Positions 20,243 through 24,516 of a stretch of DNA of 64,000 nucleotides are shown one piece after another. The DNA is taken from assembly GCA_002816455.1 (NCBI GenBank), contig MUCR01000012.1, positions 1-64,000 on the forward strand. Direction: 5' to 3'. Source of the stretch: SAR202 cluster bacterium Io17-Chloro-G4 (GTDB lineage Bacteria; Chloroflexota; Dehalococcoidia; Lucifugimonadales; UBA3495). Made by a program: the position numbers and the translations under genes. Within the stretch, counting starts at the first letter, position 1. Every line of letters begins with the position of its first letter. The notes under the pieces were generated by a model. It was not told where the DNA came from, did no database searches, and saw nothing but the letters and a program-made list of their open reading frames with translations.

Positions 20243-21070
20243 TTAGGGGTCCTGGTTTTCGAAATAATCGGCCAAGGCCTGAATTAAGTTTCCCATGTGA
20301 GGATGTTCCGGCTCCACGTCAACGTGGATGCCAGCCTCTTCCAATCGCCGGGTGCAGACCGGCCCCACCGAAGCCACAGCCAAAGACGGGCTACCCAGAC
20401 ATTCCCGAAGAGAATTCTCATTGCCGGCTTGCGCTGCGATTTCTAACAAGTTGCCGACTTGAGGTTGGCTGGTGAAAGCCACTGCGTCAATCCGGTTTTT
20501 GGCCAAGTCGTCGATAAGTTGAATCACCGGAGTCTTGTCCTCGGGCAAGCCCCAGTTATAAACAGTGAACTCTCTAACTAGGGCCCCAAGCTTAACCAAT
20601 CCCTTGGCGAAAATGTTGTTGGTAGCCCCGTAGGCTTGAACCGCCACGCTGCGGCCATTTAGGTCCATTCCATTTATGGCCGCCAGCAGGTCTTCGGAGG
20701 TGTACGGTTCCGGTGGCATGAGGTCGATATGGATTTTATGCTGTCGCAGGACCCGGGCTGGCTTGGGGCTACGGGCGATGATGGTCCGCTGGTCCAATGC
20801 GGCGATGAATTCTTCCTGCCGGCCCATGCACTCCGCAACTCCCACCAACGCCTGAGTGCCAACGCCGGTGAAGAGCACCACCACTTCAACCGAACCCTGG
20901 CAAATATCGTCGATTAGTTGCTTTAACTCGGGGCTGTCCTTCAGGTAGATTTCCTGAAGGACCGGAGCGGCGTAGGGAACACCGCCGTTGCGCTGTATCA
21001 AGGAACCCATCTCAGAGCGCATGCGTGCTTCCACGTAAGCGATTGTCTTTCCGTTGAGTGATGCTGCCAT
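20243..21070 (-). CDS. hemD: Uroporphyrinogen-III synthase
   Basis: HemD fold pattern: GKTIAYVEARM, GRSVAVQAYG, VDAVAFTSQPQV, LAVASVGPVCTRRLEEAGI. Confidence 0.82.
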   Translation of the reverse strand: MAASLNGKTIAYVEARMRSEMGSLIQRNGGVPYAAPVLQEIYLKDSPELKQLIDDICQGSVEVVVLFTGVGTQALVGVAECMGRQEEFIAALDQRTIIARSPKPARVLRQHKIHIDLMPPEPYTSEDLLAAINGMDLNGRSVAVQAYGATNNIFAKGLVKLGALVREFTVYNWGLPEDKTPVIQLIDDLAKNRIDAVAFTSQPQVGNLLEIAAQAGNENSLRECLGSPSLAVASVGPVCTRRLEEAGIHVDVEPEHPHMGNLIQALADYFENQDP

Positions 21071-21182: not shown

Positions 21183-23075
21183 CTAGACCATGCACTCGCC
21201 TTCGCCGCGCTCCAGCTTGTAGACATTGGTCCTTTCCCAGTCAAAATACAGGTCCGACTCTGCCTCGGCTTCCTTCGCTTTTTGTTGGGCTTCGGCGGCC
21301 ACGGCCGTTAAATCCTCTAACCCTACCCGGTCTAGGAACCCGTTAAAACTTTCTTTTTCCTGCCGGTTCTCTTTGAAGTAGGAGGTTATTTCCCGCACGA
21401 TGGAAGGGACCGACTTGGCGGGGACCTTCACCAAGGGAATCCGCGTGCCAATCCGGGAGTCCTCAACCCGGCTGGAGCCGTAGTTGCCGCCCAAGAACAA
21501 CTCATAAGCCGGTATCTGCTGGCCGTCCGGGCCCTTTACCGCAGCGCCGTGGAAGCCTATGTTGGCAATGTGGTGCTGGCCGCAACCGTTAGGGCAACCG
21601 CTGATTTTGATCCGCATCTTTTGAACTTCTTCATCATCTAGCAAGCCGTTCCAGGTGTCCATCTCATCGGAAATGGCCTTGGACAGACCCATGGAGGAAG
21701 TAATGCCCAATTTGCAACTGTCGGTGCCCGGGCAAGAAACCACGTCGGTGATTGTCTGCGCGCCCGGAGCCGCCAAACCGATGTCCTGCAAGGCATGCCA
21801 AACTTCGTGCAGGTAACCTTCGGGCACCCACCGCAACACGATGTTTTGTTCCAATGAGGAAACCGCGCGTCCTCCGGTGTAGCGACGTACGATCTCAGCC
21901 AGAGACCTGAACTGGACCGGGGTTAAATCTCCCCTTCTTACCGCAACGTAAACCAGGTTGTAGCCCTGTTGCCTTTGGGCAACCACGTTGGAGTCATGCC
22001 ACTTGTGGTAACCGTCGCCACCGTTGTGACCGTTCAAAATCCCCTCAGCCCCCTTTTTTAAAGGGGGGTTAGAGGGGGGATTTGGCTGGGGCGGGGTTTC
22101 CCGGTGTAACTCCTCGGCCACCATGTATGGCTTGGGGTCAATCGGGCCGATATTTTCCAACTCGGCATCGACCAACTCCCGGAAGGCGTCTAGCCCGATT
22201 CTGTCGATGAGTACCTTTACCCGGGCCATCATTCGGTTCTTCCGCAGCATTTCAGCATTGTTAAACACGGTCCAGAGGGCCAAAGCAACCCGCAAGTAGT
22301 CCTCTTCCGCCACAAATTCATAAAGAGGCTGGGCCAGCTTGGGCATGATAGACGTGCCACCGCCCACGTAGACTTTAAAGCCTTTCTTTTGAACGCCGTC
22401 TTCCTCACGGATTTGGGCTACGTAGGTCAGGTCTTGAATAGCCGCCGCCACATGGTCGTGTTGGTCGCAACCCGTGAAGGCCGACTTCCATTTGCGGGGG
22501 AAGTTTTGGCTGATGGGATGACGCACACCAAAGCGCACATAGGCGGTTAGGTAGGGAGTGGGATTGAACACTTCACTGGTGCATACTCCCGCTGTGGGAG
22601 AGCCGATTACGTTTCGGACTGTGTTCCCGCAGGCTTCCCTGGTCGTCAGGCCCACCGTGCCCAGCAGGCGCAGCACCTCGGGACAGCGGTCTAAGGGTAT
22701 GTGGTGGTACTGGATGTTTTCACGCGTGGTGATGTGGCCCTTGCCCAAGGGGGCGTATTCCTCGGCAATTTCACCCAAAACATCCAGGGCTTCAGGGGTC
22801 AAGATGCCGCCGGGGATCTTGACCCGGATCATCTGTACGTCGGCTTGGCGCTGTCCGTACACACCCTGGCGTAGGCGGAAGGGCGTAAATTCTGTTACCT
22901 CCCGTTCGCCAGCTTTGAAGGCGGCTGCCTCTTCTTCCAGTCGTTGGATTTCATAATCGATATGAGGAATAATTCCCAAAGATGACTTGGATAGTTCCAA
23001 GCTCTCTTGGTAAACATCTTCTTGGGTCTTAATCTGGGGTTGGTCGGTCCTAGTGCTCTCGGTCCTAGTGCTCAA
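21183..23075 (-). CDS. sir: Nitrite/sulfite reductase (siroheme, ferredoxin-type)
   Basis: IKISGCPNGCGQHHIANIGFHG, TTREACGNTVRNVIGSP, C...C siroheme/4Fe-4S motifs; TTG start with AGGAGA SD. Confidence 0.9.
   Translation of the reverse strand: MSTRTESTRTDQPQIKTQEDVYQESLELSKSSLGIIPHIDYEIQRLEEEAAAFKAGEREVTEFTPFRLRQGVYGQRQADVQMIRVKIPGGILTPEALDVLGEIAEEYAPLGKGHITTRENIQYHHIPLDRCPEVLRLLGTVGLTTREACGNTVRNVIGSPTAGVCTSEVFNPTPYLTAYVRFGVRHPISQNFPRKWKSAFTGCDQHDHVAAAIQDLTYVAQIREEDGVQKKGFKVYVGGGTSIMPKLAQPLYEFVAEEDYLRVALALWTVFNNAEMLRKNRMMARVKVLIDRIGLDAFRELVDAELENIGPIDPKPYMVAEELHRETPPQPNPPSNPPLKKGAEGILNGHNGGDGYHKWHDSNVVAQRQQGYNLVYVAVRRGDLTPVQFRSLAEIVRRYTGGRAVSSLEQNIVLRWVPEGYLHEVWHALQDIGLAAPGAQTITDVVSCPGTDSCKLGITSSMGLSKAISDEMDTWNGLLDDEEVQKMRIKISGCPNGCGQHHIANIGFHGAAVKGPDGQQIPAYELFLGGNYGSSRVEDSRIGTRIPLVKVPAKSVPSIVREITSYFKENRQEKESFNGFLDRVGLEDLTAVAAEAQQKAKEAEAESDLYFDWERTNVYKLERGEGECMV
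22036..22083. repeat. GC-rich palindromic repeat, copy 3, inserted in frame inside sir
   Basis: aaaatcccctcagcccccttttttaaaggggggttagaggggggattt, encoding NPPSNPPLKKGAEGIL. Confidence 0.8.
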
Positions 23076-23110
23076 GGTAGTCTCCTATGTCTCTATTAAA
23101 TAGGATGCGC

Positions 23111-23148
23111 AAAATAAAAAAAACCCGCCACACATGTAGTTGGCGGGT
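23111..23148 (-). terminator. Attenuator terminator in the sir leader
   Basis: Minus strand ACCCGCCA-ACTACATGTG-TGGCGGGT followed by a U-tract, ending about 40 nt before the sir start. Confidence 0.8.
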
Positions 23149-23195
23149 GCAGGACTGGCTGAAGCGGTGTCTAAATTACAAAAGTCGTCTGCCCC

Positions 23196-23249
23196 CTATG
23201 TGGGAGGACAACAACAACAGGTGCAGGAAGTTCCATTCACCAGCTTCAT
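23196..23249 (-). CDS. Cys-rich leader peptide MKLVNGTSCTCCCCPPT (candidate attenuation leader)
   Basis: Codons ATG AAG CTG GTG AAT GGA ACT TCC TGC ACC TGT TGT TGT TGT CCT CCC ACA TAG; 5 Cys in 17 aa upstream of a terminator and sir. Confidence 0.75.
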   Translation of the reverse strand: MKLVNGTSCTCCCCPPT

Positions 23250-23257
23250 TTGAATTG

Positions 23258-23286
23258 AGTCTATCCCAAAGAAATAGGAGTGTCAA
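23258..23286 (-). promoter_or_regulatory. Putative sigma70-type promoter for the sir leader transcript
   Basis: TTGACA (23286-23281), 17 nt spacer, TAGACT (23263-23258). Confidence 0.55.
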
Positions 23287-23360: not shown

Positions 23361-23427
23361 AATGATACTATCATTAATATCATAATAATGTTATTAATAA
23401 GCGGTAAATAAAATGAATGATAGTATC
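23361..23427. promoter_or_regulatory. Palindromic operator-like sites upstream of and overlapping the fic start
   Basis: AATGATACTATCATT (23361-23375) and AATGATAGTATC (23416-23427). Confidence 0.5.
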
Positions 23428-24516
23428 TTTTCCCCAAATTATACCATCACGGCCAGAATCGAGTTTACATTGGAGGCCATTGACCGAAACCGGTGGCTGA
23501 TCGATAACTTGCTGTTGATGCCCAAACACGAAACTTGGCTGCACCGGGAGGTGCGGGTCAGCAGAGCCGCAGGCACAACCCGGATTGAAGGGGCGAAACT
23601 GGATGAGCAAGCGGTGGCGGAGCTAACTCGGCAAGCATTGCCAGGCGCCAAGAATGAAGATGAGCAAGAAAACATCAACGCATTCCAAGCCTATGAGTTC
23701 ATCGATTTCCTGAGCGATCAGGAAGACATTCCTGTGGACGAGCTAGTCATGCGGCAACTCAACCGTTATTTCATCTCCACAGCACCTGCGACCTTAACTC
23801 CTGGAGCTTACCGGAAGGGCTCGAACAGCGTGGGTGACTTCCAGCCTCCCGACCAAGGGGACGTGCCTGACTTGATGCGATCTTTCGCCCTTTGGTTGAA
23901 GGATGAAGGTGATGAGCCACATCCCGTGATTAAGGCGGGTTTGGCCCACTTGCACATGGTCGCCATCCACCCCTTCTGGGATGGCAACGGCAGAACGGCC
24001 CGGGGCTTGGAAACCCTATTGCTCCAGCGGTCGACCTTCGGCTTTAGGAAGCTGCTGTCTCTGGAAGCGACCTTGCTGAAAATCAAAGACCAATACTTCT
24101 CTTCTCTTAGGCAAACCTTGGGAACAGGGTTCAGCGCTGAGTATGACGCTACTCCGTGGCTGGAATTCAGTACCACCGCATTGAAGCTCTGCTCGGACTT
24201 GCTGGTGGAACAGACCACCGATTGGCACCGGATGATGCAAGACGCCCGCGACCGCTGGGAAGCCACGGGATGGCCCCAGCGGTACGTGGACGCCTACGCT
24301 TTGGCGGTCCAATCTGGGCGAATTACTCGTTCCGACTACGTAGACATCACCGGAGTCTCTGTGGCGACGGCCTCCCGGGATTTGGCTGCGATGGTAGACG
24401 CTGGAGTCTTGATATCCGCAGGTAAAACTCGTTCCAGAATCTATAGGCCGGTGAATCTGGACGCAATGGACAGCAGCGATCTACCAAAGGAACAATTGCC
24501 TTTGGATCTAGGCTAA
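23413..24516 (+). CDS. Fic family protein with C-terminal winged-helix region
   Basis: Fic motif HPFWDGNGRTARGL; N-terminal RIEGAKLDEQ; C-terminal DYVDITGVSVATASRDLAAMVDAGVL. Confidence 0.92.
   Translation: MNDSIFSPNYTITARIEFTLEAIDRNRWLIDNLLLMPKHETWLHREVRVSRAAGTTRIEGAKLDEQAVAELTRQALPGAKNEDEQENINAFQAYEFIDFLSDQEDIPVDELVMRQLNRYFISTAPATLTPGAYRKGSNSVGDFQPPDQGDVPDLMRSFALWLKDEGDEPHPVIKAGLAHLHMVAIHPFWDGNGRTARGLETLLLQRSTFGFRKLLSLEATLLKIKDQYFSSLRQTLGTGFSAEYDATPWLEFSTTALKLCSDLLVEQTTDWHRMMQDARDRWEATGWPQRYVDAYALAVQSGRITRSDYVDITGVSVATASRDLAAMVDAGVLISAGKTRSRIYRPVNLDAMDSSDLPKEQLPLDLG

What the first reader, a model, noticed from the sequence alone, without database searches (positions are those of the whole stretch)
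23111..23249. Cys-codon leader peptide and attenuator upstream of sulfite reductase
On the minus strand, a 17-codon ORF MKLVNGTSCTCCCCPPT (TGC ACC TGT TGT TGT TGT) ends just before a complete 1:2 / 2:3 / 3:4 arrangement. Region 1 TCCTGCACC lies within the Cys codons. Region 2 GGGGGCAG lies at the leader stop codon. Region 3 TCCTGCACCCGCCA repeats region 1 and forms the 5' arm of the terminator. Region 4 TGGCGGG is followed by TTTTTTTT. Region 2 can pair with either region 1 or region 3 (CTGC.CCC), so a ribosome stalled at Cys codons would favour antitermination and sir transcription. Classical attenuation is well known for Trp, His and Leu, and Cys-rich uORFs are known in mycobacteria; a Cys-codon transcription attenuator on sir in this type of organism appears little described.
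Basis: partly seen in the sequence, partly recalled or inferred. Interest (0 to 1): 0.92.

Follow-up and report, generated by a model that had tools for sequence, protein, structure and literature searches.

The report
Cysteine-sensing attenuator of sulfur assimilation
Marine SAR202-type bacteria appear to switch on sulfite reductase and cysteine-making genes only when a ribosome stalls on a run of cysteine codons in a tiny upstream gene; the same switch guards two operons in most genomes of one family and is conserved across a large uncultured group.

Summary
Upstream of a siroheme sulfite/nitrite-type reductase gene (sir) lie a consensus promoter, a leaderless 17-codon ORF (MKLVNGTSCTCCCCPPT*) and an intrinsic terminator. 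In 115 distinct sir upstream regions, mostly Dehalococcoidia (SAR202 and relatives), 58 carry promoter + near-leaderless ORF with at least 2 Cys codons + terminator; 0 of 2300 shuffles do. Outside the Cys codons the peptide varies. The terminator covaries. Region 2, just after the Cys codons, pairs with the terminator's 5' arm in register (90% vs 35-56% when slid), and each genome's own partners pair better than swapped ones. Every second site checked with enough downstream sequence precedes moeB/thiF-cysM, the cysteine synthase operon. Best explanation: ribosome-mediated transcription attenuation by Cys-tRNA supply, acting on a two-operon regulon. Mechanism known; amino acid/gene/phylum combination new to the papers searched. 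No experiment has tested it.

The parts
23258..23286 (-). sigma-70-type promoter TTGACA-17-TAGACT
   Evidence: 10 of 12 consensus matches; a perfect TTGACA is kept in most relatives. Start site not mapped.
23196..23249 (-). leader ORF MKLVNGTSCTCCCCPPT* (5 Cys codons), predicted leaderless, no Shine-Dalgarno
   Evidence: Sequence; Cys-rich C-terminal part kept in relatives, N-terminal part variable; SD-like motif before only 2 of 69 leader starts.
23184..23215 (-). 1:2 hairpin: last Cys-Pro-Pro codons pair with GGGGGCAGACGAC
   Evidence: Fold -14.2 kcal/mol; 85% of cells paired in 36 relatives, no double changes.
23189..23196 (-). region 2 GGGGGCAG, begins at the last base of the leader stop codon, 14 nt after the start of the last Cys codon
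   Evidence: Conserved in alignment A2; spacing read from the sequence.
23145..23153 (-). region 3 CCTGCACCC, antiterminator partner of region 2; its 3' part is the terminator 5' arm
   Evidence: 2:3 pairing 90% of cells vs 35-56% when slid; own vs swapped partners 0 of 20000 permutations.
23123..23148 (-). intrinsic terminator stem-loop (regions 3/4)
   Evidence: -15.8 kcal/mol; 96.5% of cells paired, 5 pairs with changes on both sides, 0 of 500 shuffles.
23116..23123 (-). T8 tract of the terminator
   Evidence: Sequence.
23082..23086 (-). AGGAG Shine-Dalgarno of sir, outside the terminator hairpin
   Evidence: Sequence; SD-like motif near sir in 64 of 69 loci.
21183..23075 (-). sir: siroheme 4Fe-4S sulfite/nitrite-type reductase (regulated gene)
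   Evidence: Pfam NIR_SIR and NIR_SIR_ferr; closest solved structure 1zj8; below all NCBIfam equivalog cut-offs.
20243..21070 (-). hemD: uroporphyrinogen-III synthase (siroheme precursor), probably same operon
   Evidence: Pfam HEM4; same strand, next gene.

Best explanation
A ribosome-mediated transcription attenuator that senses Cys-tRNA supply. RNA polymerase starts at or a few bases before the leader ATG, so a ribosome loads at once on the leaderless ORF. With enough Cys-tRNA the ribosome reaches the stop codon, covers region 2, and region 3 folds with region 4 into the terminator: sir is not made. With too little Cys-tRNA the ribosome stalls at the Cys codons, covers the Cys-Pro-Pro stretch (region 1) but leaves region 2 free; region 2 pairs with region 3, the terminator cannot form, and sir-hemD is transcribed. 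An equivalent element controls moeB/thiF-cysM, giving a two-operon cysteine regulon. Shown here: the elements, their conservation, the pairing and the two operons. Inferred: translation, stalling, termination and the response to cysteine.
For: 58 of 115 real vs 0 of 2300 shuffled regions have the whole architecture. Cys makes up 21.6% of the residues between Met and the last Cys in 69 leaders, with both TGT and TGC used; part of this follows from the detector's demand for at least 2 Cys. A Cys codon outside the 1:2 stem (columns 10-12) has invariant T and G in the family alignment. Terminator covariation. Antiterminator register and own-versus-swapped energies, z -7.6 overall and significant inside and outside the family. 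In this window and many family members region 2 starts 14 nt after the last Cys codon, just outside a ribosome stalled there and under one at the stop. A model trained on sir leaders finds a second site, always moeB/thiF-cysM where checked and readable. Leaders without SD, sir with SD. No Rfam family fits.
Against: No expression data. Covariation of the 2:3 helix is modest (one pair with double changes), and 1:2 has none. In this window the 2:3 hairpin alone is no more stable than shuffles. The footprint overlap has no proper null and may be no better than the search window would give by itself. The leader is absent from some order members and from Tepidiforma-type relatives. The strength of the predicted antiterminator varies between clades.
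Confidence: 0.88

Rival explanations
1. Translational attenuation or coupling: the Cys-rich leader acts on translation of sir, as reported for mycobacterial poly-Cys uORFs, and the hairpin is incidental.
For: Mycobacterial leaderless poly-Cys uORFs regulate cysteine genes without conserved terminators (PMC1262725; PMC9031893).
Against: A covarying stem with a U-tract sits between leader and gene; the sir SD lies outside it; in this window the leader stop is about 120 nt from sir, so direct coupling is unlikely.
Confidence: 0.05
2. Cys codons are only a by-product of RNA pairing: TGTCCCC is kept to pair with GGGGGCAGG and the ribosome plays no cysteine-specific part.
For: The last Cys-Pro-Pro codons do pair with region 2.
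Against: Further Cys codons outside the stem are kept, including one with invariant T and G; Cys is 21.6% of residues before the last Cys; families with quite different RNA sequence keep CC/CxC; both operons are for cysteine synthesis.
Confidence: 0.04
3. The leader encodes a functional small Cys-rich protein (metal or redox binding), and the terminator sets a fixed expression ratio.
For: CxC motifs are conserved.
Against: N-terminal half and length are not conserved, TGT and TGC interchange, and the stop codon position is tied to the RNA helix in most of the family.
Confidence: 0.03

Closest known systems
Classical ribosome-mediated transcription attenuators (trp, his, leu leaders)
   Same: Leader ORF with regulatory codons, 1:2 / 2:3 / 3:4 alternatives, intrinsic terminator before the structural gene
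   Different: Cysteine codons, leaderless start, sulfite reductase and cysteine synthase operons, Chloroflexota
uORFC-8-2 motif (cysS, Rhodobacterales; PMC8632094)
   Same: Cys codons in a short uORF followed by an intrinsic terminator; predicted Cys-tRNA attenuation
   Different: Upstream of cysteinyl-tRNA synthetase in Alphaproteobacteria; tandem Cys codons usually at positions 14-15; not sir or cysM; no shared taxa
Mycobacterial poly-Cys leaderless uORFs (PMC1262725, PMC4633059; Canestrari 2020 via PMC9031893)
   Same: Leaderless short ORF with Cys codons near its end, upstream of cysteine/sulfur genes
   Different: No conserved terminator; translational attenuation reported; Actinomycetota
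Leaderless attenuator leaders of Streptomyces and Sinorhizobium (PMC8079986, PMC7298713)
   Same: Leaderless leader peptide in front of an attenuator
   Different: Trp, Leu, Ile and others, not Cys

Membership tests
Ribosome-mediated transcription attenuator | short leader ORF rich in codons for the end product | tested here: met
Ribosome-mediated transcription attenuator | intrinsic terminator between leader and gene | tested here: met
   Covarying stem + U-tract
Ribosome-mediated transcription attenuator | mutually exclusive antiterminator using the terminator 5' arm | tested here: met
   double changes are few
Ribosome-mediated transcription attenuator | spacing such that stalling frees region 2 and termination at the stop covers it | tested here: inconclusive
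   14-nt spacing fits in this window and many family members, but there is no clean null for the overlap counts
Ribosome-mediated transcription attenuator | termination relieved when the amino acid is scarce | not testable with these tools
   Needs expression data
uORFC-8-2 | upstream of cysS in Rhodobacterales | tested here: not met
   Upstream of sir or moeB/thiF-cysM in Dehalococcoidia
Mycobacterial poly-Cys uORF | leaderless start | tested here: met
   By sequence only: -10 ends 6-11 nt before the start codon in 69 leaders, SD-like motif in 2; start sites not mapped
Mycobacterial poly-Cys uORF | no conserved terminator | tested here: not met
   Terminator present and covarying
T-box or other known riboswitch | match to an Rfam family | tested here: not met
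   No match up to E = 1

The most novel reading that the evidence does not exclude
In Dehalococcoidia a leaderless, Cys-codon transcription attenuator is an old, regulon-level cysteine sensor: the same RNA switch was placed before both the sulfite reductase and the cysteine synthase operon, doing the job that palindromic operators may do in Tepidiforma-type relatives.
Probability: 0.4. Interest if true: 0.72.

Novelty: new member of a known kind. Interest (0 to 1): 0.6.

Why it matters
It gives a clear, testable regulatory logic for sulfur assimilation in an abundant, mostly uncultured ocean lineage. It would be a conserved intrinsic-terminator attenuator reading cysteine codons before cysteine-synthesis genes, in a phylum for which my literature searches found no leader-peptide attenuator of this kind. 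Its leaderless start gives the ribosome a loading point at the very 5' end, and the same switch recurs in two operons. It deserves an RNA family entry.

Tried and rejected
Rfam search: no match. Covariance model across 295 class genomes: only the two own sites plus one false hit inside a protein gene, so the model is specific but does not reach distant families. Two own-genome hits of the leaderless-promoter pattern (L140, L141) are not Cys leaders. Two detector hits (L042, L114) were rejected by eye as chance. A scripted listing of the second-operon leaders for an alignment stopped with an error and was not repeated. A first own-versus-swapped test had overlapping windows in some loci and was replaced. 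The Canestrari 2020 paper is not held, so it is cited through others.

Full report
OBSERVATION. On the minus strand the window reads TTGACA-17-TAGACT (23286-23258), eight bases, then ATG (23249) of MKLVNGTSCTCCCCPPT*, with the stop at 23198-23196. GGGGGCAG starts at the last base of the stop (23196-23189). CCTGCACCC (23153-23145) leads into the terminator stem (23148-23123) and eight T (23123-23116). The sir ORF starts at TTG 23075 behind AGGAG. The terminator folds at -15.8 kcal/mol (2 of 200 shuffles as good) and the 1:2 hairpin at -14.2; the 2:3 hairpin at -12.7 is not better than shuffles taken alone. No Rfam family matches.

REGULATED GENES. The downstream protein has the Pfam NIR_SIR and NIR_SIR_ferr domains. 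It passes no NCBIfam equivalog cut-off, so the profiles do not settle sulfite versus nitrite. Its closest solved relative is 1zj8, deposited as a probable ferredoxin-dependent nitrite reductase NirA; that this is the M. tuberculosis enzyme later shown to be a sulfite reductase is from memory. The next gene is uroporphyrinogen-III synthase, which fits siroheme supply. The cysteine logic of the leader itself favours sulfite reductase.

CONSERVATION. The Sir protein, or a relative of it, is found in 54 of 59 relatives. Nearly all loci of the same family that reach far enough upstream have a short ORF ending in a Cys-rich stretch, typically C-T-C-P-P-T, and many other families of the order do too. 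The genome-contig scan added 80 named loci, mainly Dehalococcoidia and SAR202. Of 115 distinct upstream regions, 71 met a loose detector, of which two (L042, L114) were set aside. A stricter one found 62 with promoter and near-leaderless ORF with at least 2 Cys, 58 of them with a terminator; 2300 dinucleotide shuffles gave 2 and 0. On a Sir tree of 100 rows the trait needs 11 changes against 32 for shuffled labels, clusters in the SAR202-type clades and is absent from the Tepidiforma/actinobacterial side (a truncated contig, L011, counts as 'no').

WHAT IS UNDER SELECTION. In 69 leaders Cys is 21.6% of the residues between the Met and the last Cys, 68 of 69 end in CC or CxC, and 55 have three or more Cys. 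The detector requires two Cys, so part of this is by construction; the shuffle test above is the fair control. Both TGT (152) and TGC (81) are used. In the 36-sequence alignment A2 the Cys codon at columns 10-12, outside the 1:2 stem, has invariant T and G. Start codons lie 6-11 nt after the -10 element, mostly 8-9; SD-like motifs precede 2 of 69 leaders but lie near sir in 64 of 69.

RNA STRUCTURE. 3:4: 96.5% of cells paired, five pairs with changes on both sides, covariation reached by 0 of 500 shuffles. 2:3: 90.2% paired versus 35-56% when slid, with one pair showing GC/UA/CG. 1:2: 84.7% paired without double changes. A thermodynamic test across 65 loci gives -16.3 kcal/mol for own region 2/region 3 partners and -13.8 for swapped ones, 0 of 20000 permutations as low; the family alone (0 of 20000) and the other families alone (1 of 20000) agree.

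GEOMETRY. In this window and many family members region 2 begins 14 nt after the first base of the last Cys codon. With the usual footprint of about 12 nt beyond the start of the A-site codon (general knowledge), a ribosome stalled there would stop just short of region 2, and one at the stop codon would cover it. Across all loci 92 of 699 paired region-2 bases fall under the first ribosome and 578 under the second. No null was run for these counts, and the placing of the search window alone may give a similar split, so I count this as consistent, not as proof.

A SECOND OPERON. The pattern TTGACA-N-TANNNT-N-ATG has four hits in the genome; one (G000:C8) is a second Cys leader, MIQPDNYLSSGFDCTCPPT*, with a like region 2, region 3 and a terminator. 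Behind it lie a moeB/thiF-type adenylyltransferase and a cysteine synthase. A peptide-end pattern occurs in 37 of 50 family genomes, once or twice per genome, with one hit for the reversed control; of the 30 loci fetched, 29 had sir or thiF-cysM downstream and one ran off its contig. The covariance model R1, built only from sir leaders, finds one or two sites in 37 of 39 family genomes and never three. Of twenty second sites fetched, nineteen precede thiF-cysM and have Cys-rich leaders behind a perfect TTGACA; the twentieth had no readable gene. Outside the family a Cys leader precedes thiF-cysM in G037 and lies between thiF and cysM in G045, both of which have no sir hit; most other families had none before thiF.

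MECHANISM. The best reading is ribosome-mediated transcription attenuation by Cys-tRNA supply, as set out above. The sequence elements, their conservation, the pairing and the two-operon distribution are shown; leader translation, stalling, termination and cysteine response are inferred. A translational mechanism is less likely because the sir SD lies outside the hairpin and the leader ends about 120 nt upstream.

KNOWN WORK. [quoted passage not shown] acnes and B. longum (PMC1262725) and found leaderless in mycobacteria (PMC4633059); functional work is Canestrari 2020, cited through PMC9031893 and PMC13236596. A Cys-codon uORF with terminator is predicted upstream of cysS in Rhodobacterales (uORFC-8-2, PMC8632094). 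Leaderless leader peptides with intrinsic terminators are described for other amino acids in Streptomyces (PMC8079986), and a leaderless trpL in Sinorhizobium (PMC7298713). My searches of the held library found no Chloroflexota case; subscription journals are mostly not covered. So: a known mechanism, in a new combination of amino acid, genes, start type and phylum.

Noticed in passing
L110, L113, L117, L118, L126, L128, L136 (sir upstream regions): Tepidiforma and related sir genes lack the leader; several have an inverted repeat of the type ACTTTATCAAC...GTTGATAAAGT near the promoter, which looks like a repressor operator.
   Followed up: no
L142:9558-9986 (-): An Rrf2-family regulator gene (IscR/CymR-like, below equivalog cut-offs) lies directly upstream of the second Cys attenuator.
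   Followed up: no
G056, whole genome: 103 hits of the leaderless-promoter pattern, many of them near-identical copies of TTGACA-N-CCGAACC-N-TAGAGT-N-ATG, against at most 15 hits in each other genome; a repeat family or unusual promoter class.
   Followed up: no
L042 (G036) and L085: sir upstream regions that keep the promoter (L042) or a promoter and terminator-like hairpin (L085) but no Cys-rich leader: possible decayed attenuators.
   Followed up: no
window 23413-24516 (+): A Fic-family protein gene divergent from sir in this genome.
   Followed up: no
window 21183-23075 (-), middle of the Sir protein: The Sir protein carries a stretch PPQPNPPSNPPLKKGAEGIL that looks like an inserted DNA repeat read in frame.
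   Followed up: no
L074 upstream region: A Cys-rich short ORF (MPGPHRTCACTCPQPP...) that is not right behind a -10 element and has no clear T tract: perhaps a non-leaderless or translational variant.
   Followed up: no
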